Origin: Urechis unicinctus
Lineage: Eukaryota > Annelida > Polychaeta > Xenopneusta > Urechidae
Length of the DNA stretch: 64,000 nt
Assembly (NCBI GenBank): GCA_034190875.2
Contig: CM067356.1
Span: 32,118,285-32,182,284, forward strand
Reading direction: 5' to 3'
Shown here: positions 28,221 to 60,353 of the stretch, in pieces
Layout of the letters: each line of letters begins with the position of its first letter
How positions within the stretch are numbered: the stretch's first letter is position 1
Notes under the pieces: model-generated
Told to the model about the DNA's origin: nothing
What the model saw: the letters and a program-made list of their open reading frames with translations, nothing else
The model's database searches: none
Position numbers and translations under genes: made by a program

Positions 28221-31200
28221 ATGGCGGCCTCCATTGATTGGCGCTCGAAATGCAACGAACAGCCAATTTTTCTGAAAATACGCAAGAATCACGAACAAGA
28301 CAAAAGTCACACTAATTCAAAAAGCTTACTAATAATCAGAAATAACGAACTGTTTGTATATGATGGATCCAGCCACAGCGTGCTGGCGACTAACTTGCAT
28401 TGTTTTGGTGAAGAAAAATCAGCGAGTTCAAAGAAACGACAGCCATTTCAGGTATAAAGTCGTCTGTTTATTAAATCATACATAATAGTTTCTCCCTACA
28501 TTTTGTATGTTTTTAATGGTCATCCTTATTAAATCATCCCAAAAGGATGTCATTGCATATAAGCTGTCAATTGAGGAACATTACACTGAAATGTTTGCAT
28601 CAATGTCCGTCATGATTTAACACATCATAACGTGAAACAAGTTAACTCTTATCGTGGTGCAATCTAAAGTAATTGCAAACATTTCTACTTCTACTAGATC
28701 ACATGTAAAATCATCTTATTCTTATAATCAGCCATATTAAGTGTATATTGAAAATTTATATCATTTAAATCCAAATTTCATAGAAAAACATGAAAATGTT
28801 GTAGTGAAAACATACTTATCAACCAATTTCTTGTTATTTTTGGAAAAAAAACTGTTTTTGCTTATCTCTGACAGGATGTACTCATGCAAAGTTACTCAAT
28901 GTAGTCACTGCTCATTTACATATATTCGTAAGCAAAGTTCTGAGACAGTTTTCAATGTGCCTGCATCAATAAATTATCGATGCCAAGTAATTAATACAAG
29001 CAAGTAGTTTTAGAGACTAATCAAATCCGGATGCAAAATAACAATTGCAACTAATCAACGAAAATTATATCTTGAATTATAGTTGCTAGTGTATCACATC
29101 CTCATCGATAATAACACAAGGGTTTGCATGAGAAAAGTATAACCCGCTGATCAGCTGTATGCAGTTATTAGATAAACGACAAAGCTCACTTTAACAATAC
29201 CTTTGCATAACAGCCTATATTATTGTTAGTATTGCTGATATTTCCTATCAATTCACACATATAAAGCATTTCCTTGACTTTCACTGTCCTTAGGATTCCC
29301 AGGCCTTGTTGTATTTACTTTCTTGATTAAATGTCCAAACTATATGTATTGTCATCTGTTTTTGTTGTTTTTGCATATGTTGAGAATGCTACTGAACTCG
29401 CCTATCTTTGTGATTTATTTGTTGATCTATACAGATGTTATCATGCAGCCAGCCTCCAGGTTTCCAAGTCGAAAGCATGTTATTCAACATTACTGGTAGT
29501 CATTTAGCATTGATTGGTCAAACTGGCATTACAGTGCTAGAGTTGCCTCCACACAGAGGGAAGTATGGCGAGTTCGCCGGTGGAAAGGATCAAATTGTTT
29601 GCAGGTATTTGTGACAGCAATTTTCAAAATCAGCCATGTATGATGAAATGCTAATGTCACCATGTATTATATGATATGCACGATTTCATGATGCAAAAAA
29701 CTTGATACTGGTGCCAGTTTTTGTAGTGTGCAGTATTGCTTAAATTGGTAACTTGTAGCAATTGGATCATTCATCGCTGATTTCATCGTTTCAACTCAAG
29801 ACTAGAACCAATGCAGTAACTTGATCTGGATATTTTGATCACCTGTTCATTTCTCTCAATATAAGCTCTATCTCTATCCATGTTCCTGTTACCAAAAATC
29901 TATTGACTAGTGGCCATGGTGTAATCAATTATATCACTCCTTGATAACTGATCTGCAAATTTTGAATGCATTTCAAAATGTAGGAAGAGAATGACAGGAT
30001 CAGAGGATATTTTACCTTAAGCCAAATACTTAAAAACACTTGGACATGGGATAAGGTCAAACAGTCAGCAGTTCCAGCAGGCACATACAACAGCACACCA
30101 GTTGTTTTTTGGAACAAAGAAAATTAAAATTGATACAAATTATTTTAATTTGAGTGAAAGAAAATAGCAAGCATCATCAGACATTGTGAAGGTTTACCGG
30201 ACCCGTTGGAAATCCAGTAAACTTTTCTCTGGTCCGATAAAAAATGTGATTGTTCACCTGTCCTCGGTCCAGTAATAAATTCTAATATACTATACATGCG
30301 AGTAACCCCTCAAAAATGAAAATAAACCCAAGAATTCGCTGTTTCACGTCTCTTTCGTCTTTCTGTCAATATTTATAATTTTCGCTGGTTCGTTAGTCAT
30401 TCGCCATGCAACGTAACTTCGGAAGTTCGGGTGATTCCGTGGTTGCCGGAAACGCACAAGTAGATTTCACGCGGATTTTTAAAAGCACGGCGTGGCCATA
30501 TATGTTTGTCAAAACTTTGGTTCAGTATCTCAGTCCGGTAAGTTTTTCTAACTTTTCCGGACCGCGATCGGGTAAAGCTTGAAATTCCTTCACAATGTCT
30601 GCATCGTGCATATTTCAGTTATGTTATCGTAACCTAATCATATTTTTCTTTTCCTTCTTGCTTTTCGAGGCAAAAACTATTCATTTTTTTTGCGCCCCTT
30701 TTGTTTAAGGCATTTGAATTATTTCACATAGCTGTTTGCTTCAGAGCCGTTTCCATTGCTCAGCGTCTATTCGTGACCAGTGGATGTAAGTTGCTGCATG
30801 CAGCATGGCACCCAGGCAGTGACACTGACCTCCATCTGGCACTTCTCACTTCAGACAACACCATCAGGTGACCTCATCAGGTTCCTTTCATTCCACATTT
30901 GTTACGGGATGAAATATACTGATGTAGTTATATGACATTTTGACTCTAAGTGTATCTGTAATTATTCCTGTCAAATCAGTTGCCAGCATGACAGATTCAA
31001 TTTGTCTCTGAGAAAACTTCAATAATACTCTTCAACGTTCATGAGAATCATCACTGGAACTTCTACGCAGGTTTTTATGAACTTGTATCCCTTGCTATTA
31101 TTAATACTATAATTGTATTGACTGTTAACCAGGCTATACAACTTGATGAAGCCAGAGCAAGCAGAACAGAGCTATATACTGGGTACCTCCTGTATGTCCC

Positions 31201-34200
31201 CATCACAGCTGCCCATTCAGCGAGCACTCGGAGACAGTGCTGCAGCTTTTGATTTCGGTCCAGCTACAAGCTTGAGTCGTAAATATAGTCATGAATCGAA
31301 GAGTGATGCTGCAACAGAGACTGTTGTGTGGCCTCTCTACGTTCTCTGGGGCAACGGGGAGGTCTACCTATTGTACACGTCATGCGAGAGAATGTACGTT
31401 TATTATTGATGTGTAGTATTTCCTACCTTTTCTTATCCACTCTGATTGCATTGTATCTGTTTGATTAGCTGGGTCTAATGCCAAGTCTTGTCGTGATCAT
31501 CAAATTCCTTTATTCCCATTCATCCATTGTGTCCATAGGTTGATCATTAAATCTTGTGACAGTTAATGCATTAGGATGGCGTCTGATACATGGTGTGTAT
31601 TCTGCTGCTACTATAGTCCTATGAAGACAGATTTACAGGGGCCACTTGTCATGTACCCTGCCGCCGATGACAACTATGGCAGTGAGGCTTGTTCTATCCT
31701 GTGTCTACACACCACGCCCACTGTCCTTATACTGGCCACGTGTCAAGGCAGGCTACACCACTGTATTGTGCTTGGCAACTCCGACTCCTCAGACACTCAG
31801 GTTATTTCTTACCTGTACTCAATAAATCATGTGACATTTACCTTTGACTTTGTATAAGTCGTATTGACTGTTGTTTGACTCGTGCAATCTATTCTTTGAT
31901 AACACCACTGAATATACTTTTTTGGTTCTGTTGTGTGATGGGGTAATAATTGTTTGTGATAGGTCACTCATTGTATGTGATGAGTTTATTACTATGTGAT
32001 TCTACAAATACTGTGATAAGGTAATTACTGCAGTTATCCATTGTGGTTATTACTGTCCAATGTGATTATCACTGTCCAATGTGCTTATCACTGTCCAATG
32101 TGATTATCACTGTCCAATGTGCTTATCACTGTCCAATGTAATTATCACTGTCCAATGTGGCTATCACTGTCCAGTGTGATTATCTCTGTCCTATGTGGTG
32201 ATCACTGTCCAGTGTGATTATCACTGTACATTGTAATGCAGTCACTGTGTGATAAGCTTATCACTGTGTCCTGTGGTTATTGTGTTAAGTTGTTGCCACT
32301 GTGTGATGAGGTTATGCAGATATCATTGTGACATTGTTATCACTGTATGTGATGTAGTTAGTGGTTATCACTATGTGGTGTGGTTATCACTATGTGGTGT
32401 GGTATCACTGTGATGTGGTTATCACTATGTGATGTGGTTATCACTGTGTGATGTGGTTATCACTGTGTGATGTGGTTATCACTGTGATGTGGTTATCACT
32501 GTGTGATGTGGTTATCACTGTGTGATGTGGTTATCACTATGTGATGTGGTTATCACTGATGTCGTTATCACTATGTGATGTAGTTATCACTATGTGTGTG
32601 GTTATCACTGTGTGATGTGGTTGCAGTACAGGGATGAGGAGGTTGACCATGATGCTAGCATCATCTACGAGTCCCTCTCGCAGCCTTCTCTCTATGTGTA
32701 CGAGACGGTGGAACTGGAACTCTCCCTGACCACAGTGTCTGTCAACACCGCCGAGCTGGAGCTTGACGACTTCACCTGCCCCATACGGCTGCACACAGGT
32801 GAGTAACTCTGTATAACGACTTCACATTCCCAGCATGGCCACACACATGTAGTAACCCTGCAAATGACTTCACCCTATTCAGCTTCACACAGGTGAGTTA
32901 CCATGCAATGTTGCCAGATCGAGGTGAGTATCCTGCAATATTAAGATGAAAACCTTATAGACCCTTCAATATGACTAGTTGAAAGTGTGTAAGCAACAGT
33001 ATTACTAGATATAGGTGAGTAGCCGTACAGTATATCTTGTAGCGTGCCTAAAGAAATTCTAATCCAAGGTTAGTAACCCAAAATATAAACAGAAATAATT
33101 GATTCACACTACAATAGTTAGATTAGGTGAGTAACCTTAACTATTGCATCGCCTACCATATTACATGATAATGGTAAGCAATCTATACTATTACTTGATA
33201 CAGATGAGTAACCATACAATATTACTACATATAATTTAATCGCCTCCAATATTTCTGGATAATGGTAAGTTGCCCACCATCTGAGGTAAGTAACCCCTCC
33301 CTGCAACCCACGCCTAGCTGAGGCAAGTGTATATCTAATATAAAATCTTGTGACAAAATATAGAGAAGATGGGTGGGGTTGCGACCCATATTCGAGATTA
33401 GGAAAATTGTGTGCAGTAAAATGAACACTATAATCTATAGAAACTGCTTCACAGTCGCAAGCGCCTATGTGTAAATGATGTGATTGTGATACCTTTTTTG
33501 GAAATCATCTGCAAATTTATGATCCAATTGATGATCGAAAAGACCAAGACACTGGTCATATCTCTCTCATTCCCTAATCAGGGTCATCTCTCCAGGGTCA
33601 TCTCTCTCTCATTCCCTAATCTGGGTCATCTTTCTCTCATTCCCTAATATGGGTCATCTCTCTCATTCCCTAATATGGGTCACCTCTCTCTCATTCCCTA
33701 AGCTGGGTCATCACTCTCCCGTTCCCTAATCCGGGTCATCTCTCTCTCGTTCCCTAATCTGGGTCATCTCTCTCTTATTCCCTAATCTGGGTCATCTCTC
33801 TCTCATTTCCTAATCCGGGTCATCACTCTCCCGTTCCCTAATCCGGGTCATCACTCTCTTGTTCCCTAATCCGGGTCATCTCTCTCTCATTTCCTAATCC
33901 GGGTCATCACTCTCCCGTTCCCTAATCCGGGTCATCTCTCCCGTTCCCTAATCTGGGTCATCTCTCTCATTCCCTAATCCGGGTCATCCCTCTCTTGTTC
34001 TCTAATCTGGGTCATCTCTCTCCCATTCCCTAATCTGGGTCATCTCTCTCTCATTTCCTAATCCGGGTCATCACTCTCCCGTTCCCTAATCCGGGTCATC
34101 ACTCTCTTGTTCCCTAATCTGGGTCATCTCTCCCGTTCCCTAATCTGGGTCATCTCTCTCATTCCCTAATCCGGGTCATCCCTCTCTCGTTCCCTAATCT

Positions 34201-36731
34201 GGGTCATCTCTCTCTCATTCCCTAATCTGGGTCATCTCTCTCTCATTTCCTAATCCGGGTCATCACTCTCCCGTTCCCTAATCCGGGTCATCACTCTCCC
34301 GTTCCCTAATCCGGGTCATCACTCTCTTGTTCCCTAATCCGGGTCATCTCTCCCGTTCCCTAATCTGGGTCATCTCTCTCGTTCCCTAATCCGGGTCATC
34401 ACTCCTGTTCCCTAATCGGGGAAGAGCAAGCAAGTGTGGGGATCTTTATGTGGTATTGGCTAAGGGTGGGAATCTTTGTGTAGAGTCCTCGGAGGAGTAT
34501 GGGATCTTGATGAAGGGTTGGAAATTCATACAGTGTGACTTCTTAGAGTAGTTGTGATCTCGGAGTTATTGTTAAGTAGGAATACCCAGTGCTTTTAATG
34601 TTTACTTAAACATGTTACTTAATGCGGGTTTGTCACCTGGACCAGTCTTGTGACATGTCATGGTGATGTTAATAAACTTTCAACATTTTGAACATACAGA
34701 ATCTCGCAACACAGGTTCTATTCTCTAAATCGGGTTACAGGGTTCTGTGCTTCGTACTCGGGATAGGGTGGGGTGGGGAGGGGAAGGGATATTAAAGGCT
34801 AACCGCTAACAGCTAGACGAATTATGCTTCAAGTGACAAGCTTCGATGTAGCGTTTGTCTCTTGTAAAATCATTGACGCCTTCATTGCGTTCTTATTGGT
34901 TTCTAGATAATTGGTTAGTCCCTGTGTCACCGGAAGTTTGCTGTGGCCAACAATATTCTGTCGGCAAATTGTGCCGTCAGTGTCGGACAAAAAGTCAGTC
35001 GTTCCCTTTTGGAAACCTTACTCCGTAGAATATTTTTATCAATATATAATTCCATACTTTGTCAAGTGAGAGAAGGTGATCTATGTTGCCGACATATTAC
35101 GGGGATCTTGGGAGAGGTACCCCATGCGCAAAAAATATACCCACTTAATATACCCGATATCCTGGCGGAGACTTTAACGCTCAATCGAACCACAGCTCGG
35201 TTCGTAAAGAAGACGAATTCCTTTGTTGGCGTATGTCGATTTCAGTATTAATCGCATCAAACCTCCTGCAAGATGTCGGTTCTTGTGCCTTCTTGGCCTT
35301 GGCAATCTGTTTAAAGTAAAAAATAAATCTTTGTTCTCTTTCTCTTCTTCGCGTTTTTTTCGTCTTATCGAACAATGCTCATCGATCTTATACTCGTCGC
35401 ACCTTTGTTTGGCATGAATCGATGTTCGTCAAAGAGATTTAACGTCGATCATCATAAGCCATTTCCAGAAGTGCACAGTAAAGTAATTGAGGGCATGCAG
35501 AGCGATCTCGTGCAATATTGTATTCATTGAAAATTTTGGTTAAGATTTCCTCCATAAGCGCATAAAAAGTCCGATTCTTGAAATAGTCCATATTCTGAAT
35601 AAATCCATTCATCGTATTCGTAGCATGTATGAGCAGCCTGTGGGACTTCGGCTGAGACCATATGTGCACAGATGCTCATAGGAATAGATATTTGAGGGAA
35701 GGTATTTTTTTTCCTTTCATGTGAATGATAGTTTTGAGAGTACTTTCAATGCACATTGGAGTTTATCATGACCAGGGATATGCATAATATATAAGCGTTA
35801 TTGTGATCGGCGTGTCCTCGATAACCGGCAGAAAACTGAGGAGGATTTTTTTTTCTCATGATCATGCCATCTTCCAGTCAGACAGGAGAGGAAAAAAGAT
35901 TCTAGTCGTGAGACTGGGAGCACTTAAAGACGGACGTGTCTGAGATAATTGGCGCGCTGTTTCAATCATTACTACAAGTCGGCGGGTAGCACGCGACGCG
36001 GCCTCTATGCGCCAACAGCTCAATCACGTCGACGACGCGCGGCACGCATACTGGCGAATAGACCGGTTCCTGATCAACACGTGAGCTATTGTATGGTAGC
36101 TGTCAGCCATCTAAACTCGATATCTTGCCATTAGTGCTCAATACCTCCGCCTCCCCCCTCCGCCTCCCGGCTTCCGTACCCCTCGACATCACCACAACTC
36201 ACACCACCACGTCGCTCCTTCTTTCTCTTCAAGGAAGCCGCCGAGAATTTGTTGCCATGACAACGCATTGAGCGGGCTTGTGATTGCTAGAAATCGTTTG
36301 GTTATCTGGTGGTAGCAGAAAGCAATAGCCTAGTGATGGATCGCGTTCGTGGGCCGAGCTTTTGTTGCAAATGAAATGAATGTGTGGTATGGGTGGATAG
36401 GCCGCTAACACGAATGCGAGATCAATTGCTGGTGTTGTTACTTGGAGGAAAGCGGATCCACCGCATCACTTCCAGTCCACTGCTGTATCAATGCGTCTTA
36501 TAGCAGCAGTCACGCGATGTTACGCTCACTAGGCCGCCAACGCTATCAATTGGCGCGCGTCCTCGGCTCTTGCTTTTATGTCATGACACACGACTTATCC
36601 GCCGTTCGCGGGGAAGTTTTATTTTCATGTTTGCATTGGGCGCCTGTAATGCGTAGACAGCTGTGCGCATTCCGACTGTTGCTATTGCTGTGGCATATAG
36701 GCTGATGAATACATGACGTGAAATATATATA

Positions 36732-36829
<98 letters not shown>

Positions 36830-37692
36830 TTGATTGATATATATTCATATATATGTACCAACACCAATATGCCCTGTTCTTCCTTGAACAAACCAGATTA
36901 CCGAGCACCTGATCCCGTTCAGCCCAGCAAGTGTTCGTCTATGACAAATCCCATGATATCATTACGGTCAGAATGCCGACTTCAAATTGAACTCGTCCAT
37001 TAATCATTGCACAATGCTGTGTTGACAGAGAGCCCGGATCGATACCATTGTTCTCACAGTGCAGGCGTCCACACCATTGTGTTGCCATGGATGCATGACA
37101 TCCAACAGTTCATAGTGGCTGGTGAGTAATCTGACCTCTCCTCTGCGGCCCTCGTCCGCAGCCAACCCCACCCCTCCTCCAAGACGCCTTTGTCGTAGCA
37201 TCATGTTCACTGACCCTCCCTGACATCAGTAATGCACCTCAACTACCCTCCCCATACCAATCATAAGCAGTAGTTTCTTTTTGTTCGCACATTTCTCTTG
37301 TTCTTTAATTTCCATATGTTCTGTTTGCGTTGTAATTTTAGGAATCATTAGGTATAATCAAGGCTCTTAAAATAGAGTTATTTAAAAAGTTCTGCTAATG
37401 ATCAATTGCACTCCTTTTCCAAAACATCCTAAACACAAGACTATTCCCTGAACTCCCAGCCAATAAGAATGAAATGCACAGGTTGTCGTCATAACGTTCT
37501 CTACTTCCTCTCCCGTTCAGTTCAGTCCTATGTCGTAAGAATGTTGATGTTAGCCTATCCCCTACCTCCGAGCCGACTTCCATTTGCTATTTTAATCCAT
37601 CAAATGTGAGCAAAATATTTAAAGTGACATGTTGTTATGGACTTATGGTTTATGAACACTTCATCAATGTGTGCGTGCAGGCTTTTGTGAAC

Positions 37693-37726
<34 letters not shown>

Positions 37727-40700
37727 ATGTATGTATGTAAACAGATGAGGGTGGCAAGTTGGGAGAGTGGAGTCAGCAACAAGCCATAGTGGAACACCTC
37801 ATCTGCACCAAACCTCTGCCCTCCAGGTATCCTCTTCTAGTACTGTTAATGAAATCCACATTGTCTCTATGATTTTGTTCCCGGTTATATTGTTGTACAG
37901 GATAGCATATTGGCACTGCTTTATTAAACATGATTCCTCATTGACTATATTGTGGTATATGACCTCACTGTGACTATATATTGATGTACACAACCTCACA
38001 ATTAATGGATTGTTGTACATAACTCAACATTGACTCTAAATTGATATGCATTACCCACATGATTGCATTATTGCTCACGACTGACTACATGTTGACCCTA
38101 ATTTGTAGTACATGACCCCACATTGACAACATTGTTGAACATTATTTCACATTGGCTGCATTGTTGTACACAACATTGACTGTACATCTTGAAAAAATGA
38201 CTCATTGCTGTTCGTGACTTCAGTTTGACTTGACATCATAGTACATGGCCCTGTGTTGACCCTGACTTTACCACACATGTCTGTGACAGTCCCCCGCTGC
38301 CTGTACTGGGTCTGGATGTAGTCAGTGATCGCACATTGGGAACCACCCTACTCTGCCTCACAGCCACCCTCCAGTGCATCACTCTGCCCCTCCACAGGTA
38401 CCACTCTATATCCCTCTCTACTCATGGCTTCTGTATATTCTAGTATGTTTGGTAGTTAAATAGTTGAATAATGTGTTGGTACGGTGATGCAGCAGCAGCA
38501 GTCGGCGTGTAGCCATGCCGCTTCTCTCCTCGTCTTCAGCATCCCATCATCACCCCGCGTCACCCCTCAGACATCTACAACAGGAGCCATTTGATGTACA
38601 TATTCGCAGGATCCTGCAGCGCACCTCCTCAAATCCCATCATACTGTGAGTACTGAGGCTCCTCCTCCAATCCCATCACACTGTGAGTACTGAGGCTCCT
38701 CCTCCAATCCCATCACACTGTGAGTACTGAGGCTCCTCCTCCAATCCCATCGTACTTTGAGTACTCAGGCCCCACCGCCAATCCCATCACACTGTGAGTA
38801 TTCAGGCACCTCCTCCAATCCCATCACACTGTGAGTACTGAGGCTCCCCCTCCAATCCCATCATACTGTGAGTACTCAGGCCCCACCTCCAATCCCATCA
38901 TACTGTGAGTATTCAGGTCCCACCTCCAATCCCATCACACTGTGAGTACTCAGGCTCCCCCTCCAATCCCACCATACTGTGAGTACTCAGGCCCCACCTC
39001 CAATCCCATCATACTGTGAGTATTCAGATTCAGGTCCCACCTCCAATCCCATCACACTGTGAGTACTCAGGCTCCCCCTCCAATCCCATCATACTGTGAG
39101 TACTCAGGCTCCCCCTCCAATCCCATCATACTGTGAGTACTCAGGCCCCACCGCCAATCCCATCACACTGTGAGTATTCAGGCTCCTCCTCCAATCCCAT
39201 CACACTGTGAGTATTCAGGCTCCCCCTCCAATCCCATCATACTGTGAGTACTCGGGGCCCCTCCGCCAATCCCATCACACTGTGAGTATTCAGGCCCCTC
39301 CTCCAATCCCATCACACTGTGAGTATTCAGGCTCCCCCTCCAATCCCATCATACTGTGAGTACTCGGGGCCCCTTCCTCCAACCCCATCACACTGCGAGT
39401 ACTCAGGTCCCTCCTCCAATCCCATCATACTGTGAGTACTCGGGCCCCTCCTCCAACCCCATCACACTGTGAGTACTCCGGCCCCTCCTCCAATCCCATC
39501 ATACTGTGAGTACTCGGGCCCCTCCTCCAACCCCATCATACTGTGAGTACTCGGGGCCCCTCCTCCAACCCCATCCTACTTTGAGTACTGAAAGGTAAAA
39601 AGTGGTGATGGCCACCATGAAGAGGTCTTCAGTTTATGTTGATGTTGTGTTTGTGACAGAACTGAAGGGAAGACGGACCTAACACCCCAGGAATCATTCC
39701 AGTTACTCAGACGAGCAACGCAGGTGTTCAGAGAGGAATACATCCTCAAGCTGGGCCATGCACGACAAGAAATCGATAAGAGGTGCCAAGGATAATCTTT
39801 ACAACTCAGGGTTGATAGTGTTAACTTGATCTTGCTGTTTATACTCCGGAAACTTGTGTGTCTGCCACAGGGTGGATCTGTTGCGCCAGCAGAAAGAAAG
39901 ATTGAAAGCTGATTTACAAGACTGTCTGCAGACAAGGAACATCTTGACGGTGAGAGCCGGAGAGCTGGCTGAGAAATACACGGACTGCAAGGACAAACAG
40001 GCAGAGCTCATATCCAGGTCAGTACGTCTTATGTACAAGATGTTAGTGAATTGGTGTATGTTACTTCCTTAAGTAAATGAGTGCCTTTTATAGTGAAGAT
40101 GAATTGTAAGAAGTCAATAAGATAGATGTCTGGGGTTTGAGGTTGTTTTTGGCCTCTTGTCAGCCTTTTCATGTTGTGTATGACCTCTTGCACCCCGAGT
40201 GGGGCAGTGTGTGGCTTCCTCTCATCCTGTGTCATGTTGCATGTGGCCTCCTGTCACCCTGTGCGATGTGTGTGTGGCCTCCTGTCACCCTGGGTGAGGT
40301 TGTGTGTGGCCTCCTGTTACCCTGTGTCATGTTGCATGTGGCCTTCTGTCACCCTGTGTGAGGTTGTGTGTGGCCTCCTGTTACCCTGTGTCATGTTGCA
40401 TGTGGCCTTCTGTCACCCTGGGTGAGGTTGTGTGTGGCCTCCTGTCACCCTGTGTCATGTTGTGTGTGGCCTCCTGTCACCCTGCATGTGACCTTCTGTC
40501 ACCCTGGGTGAGGTTGTGTGTGGCCTTCTGTCACCTTGTGTCATGTTGTGTGTGGACTTGCACCCTGAGTGAGGTTGTGTGTGGCCTTCTGTCACCCTGT
40601 GTCATGTTGTGTGTGGGCCTCCTGTCACCCTCTGTCATGTTGTGTGTTGCCTTTCACCCTGAGTGAGGATGTGTGTGGCCTCCTGTAACCTTGTGTCATG

Positions 40701-41532
40701 ATGTTGCATGTGATTGTAGAGCGGAGAAGGCACTCAGGGTCCTACAGTCGCATGCTCCCATCCTCACCGATGCTGAACGCAGCATGTCTAAACAGCTCCA
40801 AGAAATGGACTCGCGCCTCTCCGAGTACAAGACTGCCATAAAACAGGTAACACACATCAACTGCTCACATTGCTATCAAACAGGTTATACAACCATTAAC
40901 AGTTGACAAACAAGAAACATTCACCTGCAATAGAACTATTCTCGGATCAGATGTTATCTGAAGTTGATAAGGCACTTTTGTTGATTGTTGTTGTCAGCTG
41001 AGAATCAAACAGGACTACCAGACAAAGCAAATCAGTCAACACAAGAGGACGGAGAGCAAGTCAGTGCCATTCTCCAAGACACAGACGGAGTCCATACGCA
41101 CACTACTCAAGGACGAGTGAGTGTTGTTAAAGTGCTGTAGCGAGTTGACATCAACTGTATGATGAGCTCTAACTGATTGCTGTTGGCTGACAGGAAATAT
41201 ATTTGAAAAAATATGGTTGCTTTAAGGGCCTAGAGAGATTAGTTTAAACACTGTATATGATTGGGATGGGACCTTCACCAAAGCCCTAAAGGTTTCCATA
41301 TATCTGGCTATGCTCTAGATGGCTAAGTCAATGTGAAAGGTATGTTATCATGGGAATACTAATATGTATGTTACTGTTTGATCCAAGTGACATCTTGAAT
41401 TGTGTTTGTATTAGTATGTTACTGTTTGATCCAAGTGACATCTTGAATTGTGTTTGTATTAGGGGAGAAGACATAGCTGACTTGGTGAAGAAAGTTGAGA
41501 GTCTTCGTACCAACCTCGACCTTTTTCAGTGA
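28221..41532 (+). CDS. NUP88: NUP88, nuclear pore complex protein Nup88
   Basis: Exons: 28221-28451, 29435-29604, 30745-30867, 31133-31393, 31617-31800, 32627-32798, 37029-37121, 37745-37826, 38290-38397, 38493-38645, 39660-39782, 39871-40017, 40720-40846, 40998-41116, 41463-41532. All junctions are GT-AG with agreeing phases; total 2163 nt, 720 aa (human 741). Conserved stretches include [56 protein letters not shown] and [16 protein letters not shown]. Known: Nup88 has an N-terminal beta-propeller (here about residues 1-490) and a C-terminal coiled coil (here about 535-715). It sits on the cytoplasmic face of the pore with Nup214 and Nup62 and aids CRM1-dependent export. Introns 5, 6, 10, 12 and 14 carry minisatellites, three of which include the splice junction. 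Exon 10 could start at any of four in-frame AGs. Exon 7 was found by phase and the RYHC motif. Confidence 0.95.
30178..30601 (+). mobile_element. MITE-like inverted-repeat element, copy 1 (NUP88 intron 2)
   Basis: The element starts with CAGACATTGTGAAGG and ends with the exact inverse CCTTCACAATGTCTG. A second copy in inverted orientation at 46407-46830 shares most of the interior: GGCCATATATG, AATTCGCTGTTTCACGTCTC and CGCTGGTTCGTTAGTCATTC, read here on plus. It has no coding capacity. Flanks (CATCAT left, CATCGT right) are only approximate repeats, so the target-site duplication and superfamily are unresolved. A non-autonomous DNA transposon is the simplest reading. Confidence 0.8.
32030..32620. 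repeat. 19-bp minisatellite filling the end of NUP88 intron 5
   Basis: There are two related blocks: TATCACTGTCCAATGTGAT units (about 32040-32220), then TATCACTGTGTGATGTGGT units (about 32340-32620). The last partial unit, GATGTGGTTGCAG, supplies the polypyrimidine/AG of the exon 6 acceptor at 32626. The array therefore abuts the splice site directly. Confidence 0.9.
32755..33300 (+). repeat. Degenerate duplications of the NUP88 exon 6 donor junction
   Basis: The true junction ends CTGCACACAG|gtgagtaactctg at 32798/32799. Downstream, decayed copies keep GACTTCAC, CACACAG|GTGAGT and (A/G)ACCNTGCAAT. Further GTGAGT/GTGAGTA motifs start at 32893, 32924, 33015 and 33127, with weaker ones at 33066 and 33199. 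Copy length drifts around 40-110 bp. The first two downstream copies are clearly exon-derived; the rest keep mainly the donor. Confidence 0.7.
33560..34420. repeat. 28-bp minisatellite in NUP88 intron 6
   Basis: About 30 units of GGGTCATCTCTCTCTCATTC plus CCTAATCC, with Y/R variants (CCCGTTCCC, CTTGTTCCC), in a pyrimidine-rich array. Larger blocks of about 170-200 bp recur inside it, suggesting segmental expansion. It is not next to an exon. Confidence 0.95.
34421..37028 (+). other. NUP88 intron 6, distal part: no gene seen
   Basis: This 2.6 kb stretch separates the 28-bp array from exon 7. It contains GC-rich, CpG-containing sequence around 35940-36080 and an (AT)n tract at 36722-36824. The longest ORF (34943-35251, 102 codons) resembles nothing I know and has no splice context. 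The stretch is oddly CpG-rich for an intron, so an unrecognised regulatory element or short nested transcript is possible. Confidence 0.45.
36722..36824. repeat. (AT)n microsatellite
   Basis: About 100 bp of nearly pure AT dinucleotide, about 200 bp upstream of NUP88 exon 7. Confidence 0.95.
37691..37740. repeat. (AT)n(GT)n microsatellite next to NUP88 exon 8
   Basis: A TA run followed by TG and GTAT repeats ends within a few bases of the exon 8 acceptor (AAACAG, 37739-37744). Confidence 0.85.
38618..39595 (+). repeat. 37-bp minisatellite built from the NUP88 exon 10 donor junction
   Basis: The exon ends ...CAAATCCCATCATACT|gtgagtactgagg (38645/38646). The unit CTCCAATCCCATCATACTGT plus GAGTACTCAGGCCCCAC repeats this junction about 26 times, so intron 10 (1014 bp) is almost entirely array. 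Most units keep a consensus-like donor, CT|GTGAGTA. In frame, every donor reads CTG TGA, so using any downstream copy adds a stop codon at once. Confidence 0.95.
40150..40719. repeat. Minisatellite ending at the NUP88 exon 13 acceptor
   Basis: Units of about 37-75 bp contain GTGTGGCCTCCTGTCACCCT and GTGTCATGTTGCATG. The last copy runs GTTGCATGTGATTGTAG straight into exon 13 at 40720. The array therefore provides the acceptor, although earlier copies lack the AG. Open plus-strand frames here are artefacts. Confidence 0.9.
41366..41462 (+). repeat. Tandem 48-bp duplication carrying the last NUP88 acceptor
   Basis: The segment TATGTTACTGTTTGATCCAA...TTGTGTTTGTATTAG is present twice with no visible difference. 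Both copies end in GTATTAG. Only the second is followed by exon 15 (GGGGAGAAGACATAGC). It looks like a young two-copy stage of a splice-site minisatellite. Confidence 0.9.
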
Positions 41533-47449: not shown

Positions 47450-50400
47450 ATGTCTGATTCAAAGTACTTCACCACCACCAAGAAAGGTTGGTCCATCTTT
47501 ATACTAATATATATTTAATGAGTAGGAGAATTAAAACCTGTTTTTTTCTACCGTTGTTGATATGTTGTTTTATTTATCGTTTAGGTGAGATGTTCGAGCT
47601 GAGAGGGGAATTAAATTCAGACAAGAAAGATCGTAAAAAGGAAGCTGTCAAGAAAGTCATTGCTAGCATGACAGTTGGGAAGGACGTTAGGTGAGCTTCC
47701 TTGTTTACAGTAACATGGTATGTCAATGGCACTGTATTATAACTTGTTGTATGAGATATATGGATAATTAATGTTCCCTCATTTGAACGTTGCTTCTTTA
47801 TTTGTTTGTAACCAGCGTCACTCTGCATGTTGTTTTTGACAGTGCTCTTTTCCCAGACGTAATCAACTGTATGCAGACAGACAACCTGGAGCTGAAGAAG
47901 CTTGTTTACCTTTACCTGATGAACTACGCCAAGAGCCAGCCCGACATGGCCATCATGGCAGTTAACACGTTTGTCAAGGTCTGTCTACTAACATTGAGAA
48001 TACTGTGATTATCCCACCAGGCCAGTTTATGACTGTTGTTTTGATTGATTTTGCAGGACTGTGAAGACAGCAATCCCCTGATCCGTGCCCTTGCTGTGCG
48101 CACTATGGGCTGTATCCGTGTGGACAAGATCACAGAGTATCTCTGCGAACCTCTGCAGAAGTGTCTTAAAGATGAGGATCCTTATGTAAGAAAGACAGCA
48201 GCAGTATCTGTAGCCAAGCTGTATGACATCAACGCCCAGCTGGTGGAGGATCGAGGATTCCTCGACATGCTTAGAGATCTCCTCTCAGACTCCAACCCAA
48301 TGGTACTTATGAGCTGTAATTGTTGTGTTTTTAGAACAACCATCTCTGATACTGGTCAAAATTGCTTAAATCTTTCTGCCCGTTGTGTTAAAAAACTATT
48401 TTTCCTGTATTGAAGTTCTTATATTAATTTTATAACTATCCTCCAGCATCAAGAATGATATTTGGGTGATTGGGTGTAGGTGGTGGCTAATGCTGTGGCA
48501 GCTATATCTGAGATAATGGAGACATCACAGACCGCAGCGGCCATGTTGGAAGTCAACTCTCAGATTATCAACAAGCTTCTGACTGCCCTCAATGAGTGTA
48601 CCGAGTGAGTTGCTCATCCTTAGTGTGGTAAAGTTATGTGGTACGCAATGGAAAATAAGTTTACAGTTCATTATGAGTTGGGGACAGGTGTTGTATGATG
48701 TGATGATGATGTTTGTCAGGTGGGGATGGGTATTCTATAATGTTATTCTTTTAATCAGGTGGGGACAGGTGTTTATCCTGGATGCTATTGCTAACTATAC
48801 CCCTAAGGACGACCGTGAAGCCAGAGCATTGTAGAGAGAATCACACCGCGTTTGGCTCACGCTAACTCAGCTGTTGTCCTGTCGGCGGTCAAGGTGAGCC
48901 TTGTAATTATTTCCATCTGGACAGAGGCTCTAGATGCAATCATCTTAAGTTCCATTTTTTTCTCTCATTTTCAAGAGCAATTGAAATGTTGTATGTATCA
49001 GGTAATTATGAAATTCATGGAGATGATGGAGCCAGGCTCGGAACTAATCTCGCTTCTGGTGAAGAAGCTCTCCCCTCCTCTGGTCACCCTCCTCTCAGCC
49101 GAGCCAGAGATACAATATGTCGCTCTCCGCAACATCAATCTCATTGTGCAGAAAAGGTGCGTAGAGTACTGACCTCTCGTCGTCGTTTGTAGATTCTCAT
49201 TCCATCCGGTTCCTATACTCACGACGCGTATGTCATTACAGGCCTGACATCCTGAAGACTGAGATGAAGGTCTTCTTCGTCAAGTACAACGACCCAATCT
49301 ACGTGAAGCTGGAGAAACTAGACATCATGATCCGACTCACAAACCAAGCCAATATTGCTCAGGTCCTCGCTGAGCTGAAGGAGTATGTCCTGCCTCCCAA
49401 CACCATGACTTTATTGTTGATTGTAAAATCTGACAAATGATGACACCACCAATATCGTGTTTATGTGCGATGAATGATATTGTGCCTAGACATGTGATAT
49501 GTACGACCATTTTCATGTGTACACAGGTATGCTACAGAGGTAGACGTGGACTTCGTTCGTAAGTCGGTTCGTGCCATTGGCCGTTGTGCCATCAAAGTTG
49601 AGCAGGCAGCTGAGAGGTGTGTCAGTACATTACTCGACCTCATCCAGACCAAGGTCAATTATGTGGTGCAGGAGGCTATTGTCGTTATCAAGGTAACCAC
49701 CCCAGACGCATATCAACATGCTCAGGTATATCTCATATGATATCTGTATGACAGCAATATTTGTACGCATGTCGTATATTGTTGTTTGCTTAGGATATTT
49801 TCCGCAAGTATCCCAACAAATATGAGAGTATCATCGCCACCTTATGTGAGAATCTGGACACCCTGGATGAGCCGGAGGCAAGGTCAGTCAATGTGTCTGT
49901 ATTATGTGTATGTTATAGGCACAGCTGTTTGAGTGGTATTGTTTCAGAGCTGTGTTTGTGACTGTGGAAGCCTATGAAGCCTATGAGCTGTAGCTGTGTT
50001 TTGGTGATATGACTGTCTGTGTTGATGTTTCTGTTTAGCCTGCAATGATGTGGTAGCCTGCAAGCTGTGTTTGTGATGTGGTATAGCAGCCCATAAGCTG
50101 TGTTTGTGATATAGCAGCAAGATGTGTTTTGTGACGTGGTAGCCTAAGCTGTGTTTGTGGTTTGACATCTTGGATCCTGTGTGGTATGTGACAGAGCTTC
50201 CATGATATGGATAATTGGTGAGTATGCTGAGAGAATCGACAATGCCGACGAGCTTCTTGAGAGCTTCCTCGATGGTTTCCAGGACGAGAACTCACAGGTC
50301 CAGTTACAGCTTTTAACAGCCATCGTCAAGCTCTTCCTCAAACGGCCGACAGACACACAGGAGCTAGTACAGCAGGTGCTCAGTCTGGCCACACAGGTGA

Positions 50401-53400
50401 GCTGTGAATCGGTTGCTATGGCATCCGTTGTTAAAATTACCATGATAGTCTGCTGGTTAATGTGATGATGACACTTGGAAACTCACAAAAAAATATATAC
50501 AATGGCCACAACGGGTTGACACATAGTCTGTGATGCAATTTAAAAATATATTTGACACCCTAACCATATCTGACGTGTCTGTGGCTGTGATAGGACAGTG
50601 ACAATCCTGATCTGCGTGATCGGGGCTACATTTACTGGCGTCTCCTCTCTACCGACCCTGCTGCTGCCAAGGAGGTAGTGCTGGCAGAGAAGCCGCTCAT
50701 CTCGGAGGAGACCGACCTCATTGAACCTACGCTGCTTGATGAACTCATCTGCCATATCTCAAGTCTGGCCTCTGTCTACCACAAACCCCCCAATGCCTTT
50801 GTGGAGGGGCGTGGTGGAGTACCTGCCAGGAAGGTGCTGCCCCCAAGGACAGGATCGTAAGTTAGCTGATCCTAGTTAACTATCGTGTATCTATGGCTCA
50901 GCCTCATCAGGAGTGGTCGTTCACTAAATTAACTTTCTGTGGTTGTTTACACAGAACAACACCAGAAGATGCTGCTCAGACTGAATCAGCTCCACAGGGG
51001 GCTGTTCCCCAGGCAACTGTTATTCCAGGGGCAGACTCTCTGATTGGAGACTTGCTGGATATGGATTTGGGTGCACCTGTACAGCCGTTCCAGCAGCCAG
51101 GCATGCCTCAGGGCATCTCCCAACCACCTGCCATGGTGGACCTGCTGGGGGAGGGGCTCGATGGACTCGTGGGTTCTAATGAAATACTCTGCATGCATCA
51201 TCATAGCCAGTTAACCATGGCTCAGATTTCATATATTTTGTGTATAACCATGTGATCAATGTCCTCATTGCTTTGACTAGATGGGGAGCAGTGCTCCTGC
51301 AGCTGGCCCTATGGATATGGGAGGTTCCAGTGGACTGGGGGGGCTCGGGGACATCTTTGGACTGGGTATCGCTCCTATCTACACTCCACCACAAGAGGTC
51401 AGTAGAACTAAACCTTCCACTTTATCTGTCAACACAGCTTATATGTGACTGACTGTGGGTCTATCTGTGCTCTGTTAGACCTGGCTGGCCGCAGCCAAGG
51501 CTAAAGGCATGGAGGTGTCGGGCAACTTCGCGCGCAAGAACAACCAGGTGTGTATGGAGATCACCATCACCAACAAGGCCATGCAACCCATCTCTGGATT
51601 TGCCATACAGTTCAACAAGAACAGGTAAGCTTCCTCTGGGCTTAGTGACTGTGAGGGGCTGTCATTGTGAGGGCTATTCATTTTGTGGGGTGTCTTTGTG
51701 ACATCATTTTATGGGATATCATTGTGTGGGGTGTCTTTGTTTGTGACATCATTTTATGGGATGTCATTGTGTGGGTAGTCTTTGTTTGTGACATCATTTT
51801 ATGGGATGTCATTGTGTGGGTAGTCTTTGTTTGTGACATCATTTTATGGGATGCCATTGTGTGGGGTATCTTTGTTTGTGACATCATTTTATGGGATGTC
51901 ATTGTGTGGGGTGTCTTTGTGACATCATTTTATGGGATGTCATTGTGTGGGGTGTCATTGTGTAGAGTGTCATTGTGTGGGGTGTTGTTGTGTGGGGTGT
52001 CGTTGCTTGAGAAGTTGTTGTTTGGGATGCCATGGTATGAGAGTGTGGGGTATCATTGTATGGGGTATGATACAGTGACTTGATCCATCACCTGCCACTC
52101 AGCTGACTGTCTGTGTGTATGGTGTGTAGTTTTGGCTCGTCTCCTGTCACTCGGCTGACTTTCTGTGTGTATGGTGTGTAGTTTTGGCTTGTCTCCTGCC
52201 ACTCGGCTGACTTTCTCTGTGTGTATGATGTGTAGTTTTGGCTTGTCTCCTGTCACTCGGCTGACTTTCTGTGTGTATGGTGTGTAGTTTTGGCTTGTCT
52301 CCTGCCACTCGGCTGACTTTCTGTGTGTATGGTGTGTAGTTTTGGCTTGTCTCCTGCCACTCGGCTGACTTTCTGTGTGTATGGTGTGTAGTTTTGGCTT
52401 GTCTCCTGCCACTCATCTGACTTTCTGTGTGTATGGTGTGTAGTTTTGGATTGTCTCCTGCCACTCGGCTGACTTTCTGTGTGTATGATGTGTAGTTTTG
52501 GATTGTCTCCTGTCACTCGGCTGACTTTCTGTGTGTATGGTGTGTAGTTTTGGCTAGTCTCCTGCCACTCAGCTGACTTTCTGTGTGTATGGTATGTAGT
52601 TTTGGCCTGTCTCCTGCCACTCAGATGAACATCCCCAACCCTCTCCAGCCAAATTCGAATGTGAGTGTGTCTCTGCCTCTCAACACCATGGGTGCCGTAC
52701 AGAGGATGGACCCACTCACCAACTTACAGGTTTGATAACAAAGCTAAGATAATTGTTGTGTTTTTTTCAGAATAATGAGATTCTTATTTAATATTTAAAT
52801 GTATGCTACATCTATAGAATATATAGGGGTTGTGCAAAAGCTATAGTGTATTAGATCTCTGTGATTATTAGCTTTATTAAAGATGTTGGTTGATATAACC
52901 GCATTCACATCAATGTAACAGATCATGGTGTCTTTTCAATTTTGGTCCTCTGTAGACTAGGTTATACTTTTTGTATTGTAGTTTCTATTTAACACATCCA
53001 GATATTATGCTTTGGTTTATCAATATGAAACTGTGCTGTAATGTTGAACTGTTCAGCTTGTGTAGTCATGTTACTTCAGTGAATGTGTGTATGGTGAGTA
53101 TCGCTAGCCAGTTTTCCTTATCTCTGTCTGACAGGTTGCCATGAAGAACAACATTGACGTGTTCTACTTCAGCGTGCTCGTGCCAATGCACACGTTGTTT
53201 GTGGAGGAGGGTGAGATGGAGAAGCGTGTGTTCCTCGCTACCTGGAAGGACATCCCACCTCAGAATGAGGTCCAGTTTGAGATCCGCGATGTACAGCACA
53301 ATGCTGGTGAGGACATGTTGTCTGATTCAGCCTCAGGGGGCTGGTTTGATTGAGGCGGGTGACATATGCTGATTCAGCCTCGGGGGGCTGGTCTGATTGA

Positions 53401-56400
53401 GGCGGGTGACATATGCTGATTCAGCCTCAGGGGGCTGGTCTGATTGAGGCAGGTGACATATGCTGATTCAGCCTCAGGGGGCTGGTCTGATTGAAGCTCA
53501 GGTGGCTAGTCTGATTGAGGCTCAAGTTGTTTGATTGATGCATGTGACATTATCTAAGTGTGGCTCAAGTTGTCTAATTTAAGGGTGTGATATTGTGACA
53601 TGATTGATGTCAATATTTATAGTTGATTGATCGTTTCCCTTAAGCATATGGCTGTTTCTGGTGATGGTGCTGATATTCATGTGCATCTTTGTTTTACAGA
53701 TACGCTCTCATCGAAACTGAAGAACAACAATATCTTTACGATTGCTAAGCGTAACGTCGAGGGACAGGACATGCTTTACCAGTCTGTCAAGCTTACCAAT
53801 GGTATCTGGGTGCTGGCTGAACTCAAAATACAGCCTGGGAACCCTACCATCGTGGTCAGTATTCCCCTGTACTCCAGTGTTTACATGTCGTTGTTGTTGT
53901 TGTTGTGAAGCTATTGGAGTGGCTTCGTTTTTTCTCCATTTAAAACAATATGTGTAATACGGGAAAATTACCTTGTGCTCAGATTTTCATAGAATTCAGT
54001 TTTGCGTGAGATATGTGGCGTGTCATTCAGTTTTTCGACGTGTGTAATTGAGTGATGCCTCTGGTGTTTTGATGGATTGATGTTTGTGATGTGTGTGATC
54101 GGGTCATGTGTTTGTGTGTGTAATTGATAGATGTTCTTGCTGTGTGTATAATTGAGTGAAGTTTTTAGCTCTGCTCTTGAGCATGGCTTATCATGTACAT
54201 TTACTTTGGCACCAGTCTGTTGCACGTTTTCATTATCCAACAAGCTACTATTTTCAAATTATACATGGACCTCTCTTATGTTGATGACTTCTTGCAAACA
54301 TAAAATTCAGCCCCACTAGACCTTTCTATCCCTGATTATCAGGGACAATACCAAACAAAATCTCTTGTCCTATGTTATAGCACATTTCCTTATCAAACAA
54401 GCTAGCTGACCCAAATTATGCTTGGACCCCTCTGATGTTTATTTTTTCTTGCAAACTTATAATCAGCCCCATATGACCTTTAGCCCTAAGTTACTTGAGA
54501 AAATCTTTTAAGACAATCTCTCATACTATGGTGACCCAATAATGAATGACTTTTGATGGCACTTTTTCTAATGAAGCGAGCTGGATGACCTGAGTTACAT
54601 AAATGAACCAGTTGGATATTCATGGCTCTTGCAAACTTAAAGTCAGATTTATAGAGAAGAAAAATCATAACAGTATATCTAGTGGGGATTATGTTGATGG
54701 CACTTATTTAGCTGTTCAGCAAATCTAATTGTATACCTTCACTCCGGCGGCATCTGTCCATTCATAAACTTTTATGGAGAGTTTTCTTATAAAGTGCCCC
54801 AAATAAAACTTCTCATGACAATGGGTATCTTTGCATGCTAACAATCAGCTCTGCATGACCTTTGTATTATTAAAATTAATGTAATAGAACTATGTTTTGG
54901 TGTATATGATTGAGTGATGTTTTTAGTATGTGTAATTGACTGATGTTTTTGGGTGTGTTTAATGAGTGATATTTTTATGTGTATACTTGAGTGCTGTTTT
55001 TGGTGTGTATAATGGGCCTCTTCACAAGCTCTGGTAACTTTCACACCTGCCAAGAGTCCCACCCTCGTGCACAGCACTTTAGACTGAAACAGGGGTCATG
55101 TTTTGTTAGTACTATAGCGATACTGTTTTGCATCCTTGCGTTGGAGGCATCAAAGACTTCCCTGAAAGTGTTAAGTGTATTTTGAATTGTTCTTGAGTTC
55201 ATCTGAATGCTCTCAGCACATTTTGAGCTGTTCTCATGAGCGCTGAAAACTACAAAGACAGTGAAATGCCCTGCTCTAGTAACAACAAATCCTGGTTTAT
55301 GGTGTCAGCTAGAAATGCCCTTTGCAGCACAGGTGCTGTGGACTTGGTTGGGGAAGATGACAGGCTTTCTCATCATGCGGCTCCTTTGTCATGGTTGCAT
55401 GTGAAATGGCACATCATTGCCCTCATTTTTCATCCAGTTTACAGCTTAGCATCGCCTTTTTCCCCATTAAATTTTGAATGCAGAAGGCTAAAAAGTCAGG
55501 CCCAGAATCATATCTGAAGTCGTTTAAATACTTGCGCTTAGCTACGCAAACTTCAATGATGAGTAAATGCATATTCGACAAGACGACGCAGGGAATTGAA
55601 AATCACCATTATTTTTGGTACAATGTGATTTTCCCACAAGTAGCACCCACTATGATTCAACTGCTTGTTTTTGACTGCGTGAATATGTCTGTTGAGGAAA
55701 AGCCCTGCTTGAATTCCAATTGCAAGTGGTCATTAGATATATAAGGCAGTTAGTGTCTGTGAACTGCCATGCAGTGAGTTTGTTGGGTCTGGAAGGGTGA
55801 TCTGCTGGCCCTCTATGGTCGTAGTTCTTCTCTCTTTATCAATCTTGTCTCGATCATCTTCCCCATAAAATCGCACGACTACAATGCGTGCTCGTAGGCA
55901 GGGAGGCAAAGCAGCATCACTAAAGCACTAACAACGCATTGACAGCTTGACAGCCAAGAAATATGACACTGCTTCCTGTTCAAAATCAGTATCGCTGCCT
56001 GGCGGTTGCAAAATGATATGTAGAGCTTGTGAAGAGATCAATTGAGTGCTGTTTTCGGTGTGTATAATTGAGTGATGTTTTTGCTGTGTATAATTGAGTG
56101 ATGTTTTTGCTGTGTATAATTGAGTGATGTTTTTGCTGTGTATAATTAAGTGCTGATTTGGTGTGTATAATTGAGTGATGTTTTTGCTGTGTATAATTGA
56201 GTGCTGTTTTTGCTGTGTTTAATTAAGTGATGTTTTTGCTGTGTATAATTAAGTGATGTTTTTGCAGTGTATAATTGAGTGCTGTTTTCGGTGTGTATAA
56301 TTGAGTGATGTTTTTGCTGTGTTTAATTGAGTGCTGTTTTTTGGTGTGTATAATTGAGTGATGTTTTTGGTGTGTATAATTGAGAGATGTTTTCGGTATG

Positions 56401-59427: not shown

Positions 59428-60353
59428 CAGGAACAACGTGTATGGACGCGGCAATCTGAAACACCAAACGTCAGTTATCAAAGCATGCAATGCCACTGGT
59501 ATGCATTCGTTGGTGCCATTTCCACATTACAGGCACAGATCTTAAGCATTTTTTTCTAATGCTGTCCATCACTTTGTTGACTGGGAACATCGGTGATCTC
59601 ATCTTTAATACCTCAGTCGATAATGTTGGTGACAGTTACATCAACAAAGACAAACGTAATGATACTCAAGAAGTATGAGTAATTATCAGATGCTGTTATA
59701 TTCTGTGTAAAAGACCAACACATACACCTGCAAATTATAAAATTGTTCTAACAATACGATATGTCATTTATTCAACAAAATAACAGACACAGCGTCATAT
59801 ATAAAGTCATATATAAAACTAGGTTGCTATAAGCAACATATAAGGCAGCATGCAAATACAGTCGGGAGCGGAATCGAGATTTGACGTAACGAGAATGAAA
59901 CGAGAAGTGGGAGTATATAATACACATCCAGAATATAACAATAATATACAGCAGAATAAAATATACGAGCAGAAAAAATAGCAGTTTTGAAACTCAATGT
60001 TACACAAAGACGCATTGAGTAACAGAGCAACCTTGTTGTTTAGCAAATAAGCAATATAAGCCAGTTATTCGTGGCCGTCAAAGTTAAATGTATTTGTCGG
60101 ATAACATACTCTTATGGATAGAATTTTTTCTTCAATGATATATCAATAAATTTCATTCATTTATAAATGTTAATTGTGGGTACTATAAAATATAGTGATT
60201 AAAGCAGCTAGACAGATAATTAAGCAGTGAGTAAATGGGCTTTTGGTCCACGGAGGTTTTGGGTTTGTTTTTTTTAGGGGGGTGCTTCATGAGATGATTC
60301 ATGTATCTAAAATATGATATAATATAATGATGTCATCATTATCACTGAAACCC
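59428..60353. other. Spacer between the P4HA copies: no gene seen
   Basis: AT-rich. It must hold the 5' leader, upstream exon and promoter of copy 1 and the 3' UTR of copy 2. No coding sequence was recognised. Confidence 0.5.

What the first reader, a model, noticed from the sequence alone, without database searches (positions are those of the whole stretch)
38618..39595. Intron made almost entirely of about 26 copies of its own 5' splice junction (NUP88 intron 10)
The 37-bp unit repeats the last exon bases and the donor GTGAGTA. Nearly all of the 1-kb intron is this array. In frame each donor reads CTG TGA, so any downstream donor yields a stop at once and presumably mRNA decay. Thirty-seven is not a multiple of three, so there is no in-frame escape.
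Basis: partly seen in the sequence, partly recalled or inferred. Interest (0 to 1): 0.85.

Follow-up and report, generated by a model that had tools for sequence, protein, structure and literature searches.

The report
Intron built from repeated splice junctions
In what is probably a worm's nuclear-pore gene, one intron consists almost wholly of 25 tandem copies of the stretch where the preceding exon ends and the intron begins, giving many equally good splice signals of which only the first can make the protein; similar arrays were described before in lancelets and in a human gene, so this is a striking new case of a known kind.

Summary
NUP88 exon 10 ends at 38645 and exon 11 starts at 39660 (15-exon model, one open 719-aa frame). 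The 1014-bp intron between them is 93% tandem array. The unit is 37 bp: the last 24 bases of exon 10 plus the first 13 of the intron. There are 26 copies, the real junction plus 25 decoys; 22 of 25 decoys keep GTGAGTA, one reads GC, two TT. Using any decoy gives a stop at once (ATA CTG TGA).

Protein trees place the window near the annelid Capitella, not a lancelet. The same window has a mirror case: ten 52-bp copies of a 3' splice junction in an AP-1/2 beta gene. NUP88's last intron also has a flush 48-bp duplication of its acceptor.

Tandem junction repeats are known: amphioxus "mirages", and the human ABCA7 intron-18 VNTR, whose unit begins with the exon-18 donor. Most likely this is a minisatellite born by local duplication and splicing-silent, with rare leakage to decay. 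No RNA, sister-species genome or own-genome search was available. Interest 0.5; new member of a known kind.

The parts
38496..38645 (+). NUP88 coding exon 10 (start uncertain: weak CAG-run acceptor; end firm)
   Evidence: spliced alignment; open frame through 15 exons
38622..38658 (+). copy 1 = the real exon/intron junction: 24 exonic bases + 13 intronic bases, donor at 38646
38622..39593 (+). 37-bp tandem array, 26 copies of the junction (1 real + 25 decoys; decoy donors at 38683 to 39581)
38757..38763 (+). decoy donor broken to TTGAGTA (another at 39581)
39395..39401 (+). decoy donor changed to GCGAGTA
39543..39549 (+). most downstream intact decoy donor; would give a 117-nt intron, near the median of the neighbouring AP gene (144) but shorter than NUP88's own median (543)
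38646..39659 (+). NUP88 intron 10, 1014 bp, 948 bp of it array
39660..39782 (+). NUP88 exon 11 (acceptor TTTGTGACAG|AACTG, phase 2)
41367..41462 (+). two identical 48-bp copies ending exactly at the acceptor AG of the last NUP88 intron (exon starts 41463)
52091..52622 (+). 52-bp array, 10 copies of a 3' splice junction (intron end TGTGTAG or TATGTAG plus the exon start TTTTGG...) in an AP-1/2 beta gene; the last copy (exon from 52600) is the real one

Best explanation
A junction-spanning minisatellite of the kind called a 'mirage' in lancelets, here most likely in an annelid. Shown: the last 24 exon bases and first 13 intron bases of NUP88 exon 10 are repeated in tandem on the intron side, so the intron now consists of decoy 5' splice sites. 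Inferred: it arose by local tandem duplication of the junction (slippage or unequal exchange) and then expanded and homogenised like any minisatellite. Only the first donor can give NUP88, because every later donor leaves the TGA formed by CT|GTGA in frame. The spliceosome is expected to use the first donor nearly always, since it lies next to the real exon and is made first, and the decoys to be mostly silent; any leakage would give a truncated frame (525 aa) that nonsense-mediated decay should remove. No dedicated function needs to be assumed.
For: Exact repeat anatomy. The exon end was found independently by spliced alignment and the protein there is conserved (N-P pair aligned in 19 of 22 relatives), so the exonic half is old coding sequence. 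Decoys nearest the exon keep the real intron half best: intronic identity to copy 1 falls along the array, Spearman -0.61, p 0.001. Donor motifs are not kept better than the best part of the exonic half: the donor window is intact in 22 of 25 decoys, and so are two windows that do not touch it. All 25 downstream donors give the same stop. Precedents with RNA data in print: amphioxus globin and Adh arrays are said not to disturb splicing (PMC3087553); in human ABCA7 one-unit retention from a downstream donor occurs and shifts the frame (PMC5954066).
Against: No RNA was examined, so use of the first donor is inferred from the protein alone. The decline of identity along the array is weak over the whole unit (p 0.09) and absent in the exonic half (p 0.79). 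The donor window ties for the most intact of all 37 windows, so weak selection on it is not excluded, though the units were found with a donor anchor. If intron definition ruled, a distal decoy (117-nt intron) might be expected to win, which would break the gene.
Confidence: 0.8

Rival explanations
1. A regulated poison array: many equal donors let the cell set NUP88 level by diverting a share of transcripts to immediate stop and decay.
For: All 25 decoy positions (22 with an intact donor) give an immediate stop; donor strength is identical to the real one by the matrix used, 2.6 for each intact copy; the donor window ties for the most intact window of the unit.
Against: Two windows of the exonic half are kept just as well; the stop follows automatically from CT|GTGA in this phase; two decoys are dead and one is GC.
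Confidence: 0.08
2. A self-masking array: an RNA palindrome over most decoy donors (UGAGUA, C or U, UC, A or G) makes decoys pair with one another, leaving the first donor freer.
For: 19 of 25 decoys have the full palindrome; the real junction and copies 2, 3, 6, 21, 23 and 26 lack it. Copies 12-13 and 13-14 fold alone into a 10-bp hairpin of -12.8 kcal/mol; copies 1-2 and 2-3 fold differently, at -8.8 and -9.2. Median predicted unpaired probability is 0.0007 for decoys against 0.008 for the real donor.
Against: 15 of 60 column-permuted arrays mask decoys as well or better; the 30 other donors of the two genes have a median of 0.004, so the real donor is ordinary; in the minimum-energy fold the real donor pairs with copy 12.
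Confidence: 0.05
3. The intron itself is young: it was created by duplication of a coding stretch that carried a latent donor (Rogers-type intron gain).
For: The array fills 93% of the intron; such models are in print for amphioxus globins and for human repeat genes.
Against: The acceptor in use lies outside the array: the last 66 bases of the intron are not repeat units. Intron positions in other species could not be read.
Confidence: 0.12
4. A dispersed satellite that happens to abut exon 10, or an assembly artefact.
For: None found in the calls made.
Against: The unit includes coding bases at a conserved protein stretch; no other copy in the window; copies differ from one another (mean pairwise identity of decoys 0.88), unlike a collapse or stutter.
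Confidence: 0.03

Closest known systems
Amphioxus 'mirages' (Adh3, globin BflGb6/BflGb9; PGBD5 and troponin C also cited)
   [quoted passage not shown] many copies carry splice signals; said not to disturb splicing; Adh3 units of 10-72 bp are of similar size (PMC3087553 passages; PMC3902484 passage; the original Adh paper was not held).
   Different: Nearest named relatives are annelids, not lancelets. The globin cases have units of 157 bp and 150-160 bp, the latter in 3 and 6 copies; here 26 copies of 37 bp fill 93% of the intron. Copy numbers of the Adh3 arrays were not seen.
Human ABCA7 intron-18 VNTR
   Same: Short unit (25 bp) whose first two bases are a donor GT, the first being that of exon 18; 23.7 copies in the reference; use of a downstream donor retains one unit and shifts the frame to a stop (PMC5954066 passages).
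   Different: By its description the ABCA7 array starts at the GT, so its units carry no exon bases; here each unit carries 24 coding bases. Length polymorphism and disease association are known there, nothing here.
Human internal tandem repeats at exon-intron boundaries; UBC/VCX3A dual-specific sites
   Same: Tandem repeats at boundaries that alter splicing or create introns (PMC2812944 passages; PMC10809524 passages).
   [quoted passage not shown] here one intron is filled by copies of its own donor junction and its acceptor lies outside the array.

Membership tests
Amphioxus-type mirage (junction-spanning minisatellite) | tandem unit includes both exon and intron sequence across a splice boundary | tested here: met
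   24 exonic + 13 intronic bases
Amphioxus-type mirage (junction-spanning minisatellite) | copies carry splice signals | tested here: met
   22 of 25 decoys with GTGAGTA
Amphioxus-type mirage (junction-spanning minisatellite) | normal splicing despite the array | not testable with these tools
   no RNA data; only the protein frame supports it
Amphioxus-type mirage (junction-spanning minisatellite) | length instability among haplotypes or cells | not testable with these tools
   single haplotype; own-genome search unanswered in 10 tries
Amphioxus-type mirage (junction-spanning minisatellite) | occurs in cephalochordates | tested here: not met
   P4HA genes group with Capitella (SH-aLRT 100, 22 chosen relatives); NUP88 only 43% identical to Branchiostoma. 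This concerns the host, not the structure
ABCA7-type donor VNTR | units bring copies of the 5' splice site directly after the exon | tested here: met
ABCA7-type donor VNTR | low-level use of downstream copies giving a stop | not testable with these tools
   the stop is predicted; usage unknown
Intron gain from tandem duplication (Rogers model) | intron absent at this position in relatives | not tested
   no eukaryote genome was read
Dispersed satellite | unit found at other places without exon sequence | tested here: inconclusive
   none elsewhere in the 64-kb window; the rest of the genome was not reached

The most novel reading that the evidence does not exclude
In this annelid lineage splice junctions are preferred birthplaces of minisatellites, at both 5' and 3' ends, so that introns are repeatedly colonised by arrays of their own junctions; 'mirages' would then be a widespread way for introns to grow and not a lancelet oddity, and each array a natural test of how the real site is chosen among many identical ones.
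Probability: 0.35. Interest if true: 0.7.

Novelty: new member of a known kind. Interest (0 to 1): 0.5.

Why it matters
The intron offers 23 donors with the same core GTGAGTA (22 decoys plus the real one), mostly 37 nt apart, in one natural gene, with a clean predicted readout: the first gives protein, the others a stop. Junction reads would show directly whether exon definition, intron definition or order of synthesis decides. With a 3' counterpart in the next gene and a flush acceptor duplication, it suggests that junction minisatellites, in print for lancelets and human, also arise in lophotrochozoans.

Tried and rejected
Lancelet origin was my first guess, from the minisatellite-rich introns. 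It was rejected: in the P4HA search the named protein of highest identity over most of its length is from Capitella teleta (60% over 95%), although a longer beetle protein (Holotrichia oblita, 43% over 81%) ranks above it by E-value, and no Branchiostoma name appears in the 120 rows listed of 2622. NUP88 is 45% identical to Owenia (99% covered) and Capitella (89%), and 43% to Branchiostoma. Trees of 22 chosen relatives each are.

Selection on decoy donors: not shown. The donor window is intact in 22 of 25 decoys and ties with five other windows for the best of 37; three of those five overlap it, two lie in the exonic half. Self-masking by the donor palindrome: not above control. Higher-order repeat: neighbour identity peaks weakly at lag 3 (0.93 against 0.87-0.90 at the other lags up to 12); not followed. 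In the gene models a 6-base micro-exon at 32918-32923 was dropped as spurious, exon 1 was extended to an ATG, exon 5 end, exon 6 start and the last exon's end were set by hand; in the AP gene two neighbouring pieces (48759-48819, 48825-48893) were merged and the last piece (54381-54413) left out.

Array-junction test: I carried 15 rows by hand into, some of them merged from overlapping rows; one further weak row in the NUP88 span (36144, score 50) was not carried and would have failed the cut. I kept 9 (score at least 150, period at least 10, inside the two gene spans) and dropped 6. 3 of 9 are flush with or cross a junction (expected 0.08, P about 5e-5); 7 of 9 lie within 25 bp (expected 2.0, P 8e-5; the distances were chosen after seeing the data). 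The null is simple and the exons are predicted.

Conservation at the junction: a first pattern search showed the right stretch for only 6 of 11 relatives (one wrong stretch, four nothing); the alignment covers 22, with the N-P pair in 19.

Papers: 10 searches; passages seen in PMC3087553, PMC3902484, PMC2812944, PMC2632668, PMC10809524 and PMC5954066; no paper was read whole. The passages of PMC2632668 (lancelet VCBP genes) say nothing of junction repeats. No paper reporting such arrays in an annelid was seen in the listings; the library holds only open-licence papers and most listings were cut, so this is weak.

Full report
What is there. The window carries a NUP88 gene on the + strand. Spliced alignment to human NUP88 (protein recalled) gave the exons. 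After dropping one spurious 6-base exon and setting the first ATG, the end of exon 5, the start of exon 6 and the last stop by hand, 15 exons from 28221 to 41532 join into one open frame of 719 aa. It matches Pfam Nup88 from residue 7 to 714, E 4.5e-194, and is 45% identical to NUP88 of Owenia fusiformis over 99% of its length. Exon 10 ends at 38645 and exon 11 starts at 39660, in phase 2. The start of exon 10 is uncertain.

The array. From 38622 to 39593 the sequence is 26 copies of a 37-bp unit. In register with the junction the unit is 24 exon bases followed by 13 intron bases. Copy 1 is the real junction. The other 25 lie in the intron; 22 keep GTGAGTA, 38757 and 39581 read TTGAGTA, 39395 reads GCGAGTA. 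Of 25 spacings one is 43, one 39, two 38 and 21 are 37. The array makes up 948 of the 1014 intron bases. The unit is found only here in the window: 26 matches, none in 100 shuffles.

Direction of origin. The exonic half codes for S-N-P-I-I-L; Owenia has SNPILK, Capitella SNPLLQ, Branchiostoma SNPILK, a turtle ANPLLL, and the N-P pair is aligned in 19 of 22 relatives. So the exon sequence is old and the array was most likely copied from it. The intron half of the decoys resembles copy 1 most near the exon (Spearman -0.61, p 0.001); the exonic half shows no such trend (p 0.79), and over the whole unit it is weak (p 0.09). One base (column 10 of the unit, A) is private to the exon copy.

Consequences for the message. 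I joined exon 10, extended to each decoy, with exon 11 and the rest. All 25 extensions stop at the same place, after 525 codons, because CT|GTGA reads CTG TGA in this phase. Truncation would remove the last 194 of 719 residues (27%), and with downstream exons present decay is expected (inference).

How the right donor could be chosen. With the simple matrix used here the intact decoys score exactly as the real donor (2.6 each), so donor strength cannot decide. Position can: the real donor ends an exon of about 150 bases, whereas decoys imply exons of 187 to 1085 bases. Intron size may point the other way: the decoy at 39543 would leave a 117-nt intron, near the median of 144 in the AP gene, though NUP88's own median is 543. 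I tested folding. 19 of 25 decoy donors sit on a full RNA palindrome, and decoys have a median unpaired probability of 0.0007 against 0.008 for the real donor; but 15 of 60 column-permuted arrays hide decoys as well or better, and the 30 other donors have a median of 0.004. So no special masking is shown. Nor is the donor shown to be specially preserved: its seven columns are intact in 22 of 25 decoys, which ties for the best of 37 windows with five others, three overlapping it and two in the exonic half; the units were found with a donor anchor, which favours that window.

Neighbours. The same window holds two more arrays at junctions. In an AP-1/2 beta gene (spliced alignment; adaptin domains in two of its frames), 52091-52622 is ten copies of 52 bp, each with an acceptor GTAG|TTTTGG and the following exon bases; the last is the real exon start at 52600, and each of the nine upstream acceptors leads to a stop within 3 to 35 codons. 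In NUP88's last intron a 48-bp unit is exactly duplicated, ending on the acceptor AG. Of nine sizeable arrays in the introns of these two genes (nine kept of 15 rows carried over by hand), three are flush with or cross a junction, where 0.08 are expected, P about 5e-5. Against this: the sample is two genes, the exons are predicted and the null is simple.

Whose genome. Two adjacent P4HA frames without introns (minus strand, 57802-62012) group with two Capitella teleta proteins and two unnamed rows at SH-aLRT 100, among 22 relatives that I chose; NUP88 falls with Capitella and an unnamed row at 87, in an unresolved fork, and Owenia is outside that fork. The window is therefore most likely annelid. 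The species is not known, and its genome could not be searched.

Against what is known. Tandem repeats over exon/intron boundaries are reported in lancelet Adh3 and globin genes as 'mirages', at either end of exons, said not to disturb splicing (PMC3087553, passages), and again for PGBD5 (PMC3902484, passage). Human ABCA7 has a 25-bp VNTR of 23.7 reference copies whose first GT is the exon-18 donor; use of a downstream donor that retains one unit is seen and shifts the frame (PMC5954066, passages). So the kind is known. New here, as far as these searches show, are the likely annelid host, the near-complete take-over of an intron by its own 5' junction with 24 coding bases in each copy, and a 3' counterpart about 12.5 kb away. 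I file it as a new member of a known kind, interest 0.5.

Noticed in passing
52091-52622: Ten tandem 52-bp copies of the 3' splice junction of an AP-1/2 beta intron; the nine upstream copies all lead to stops. A mirror image of the NUP88 case.
   Followed up: yes
41367-41462: Perfect two-copy 48-bp duplication ending exactly at the acceptor of the last NUP88 intron.
   Followed up: partly
57802-62012, minus strand: Two neighbouring P4HA-like genes without introns in their open frames (542 and 540 aa, 65% identical), grouping with two Capitella proteins; the two window copies are closest to each other.
   Followed up: partly
32361-32622: 19-bp array that runs to within 4 bases of the exon 6 acceptor (exon from 32627) without including it.
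   Followed up: partly
9349-9738, minus strand: Exon-like frame matching the CUX1 N-terminal domain (Pfam CUX1_N, E 4.4e-14); suggests a CUX1/CASP-like gene on the minus strand in the left part of the window.
   Followed up: no
38646-39593: 19 of 25 decoy donors sit on a self-complementary RNA stretch; the real donor and copies 2, 3, 6, 21, 23 and 26 lack its full form. Folding control did not single it out.
   Followed up: yes
22343-22874: 30-bp array, 17.8 copies, 93% matches, open in one + strand frame for 177 aa (and in minus frames); no gene assigned.
   Followed up: no
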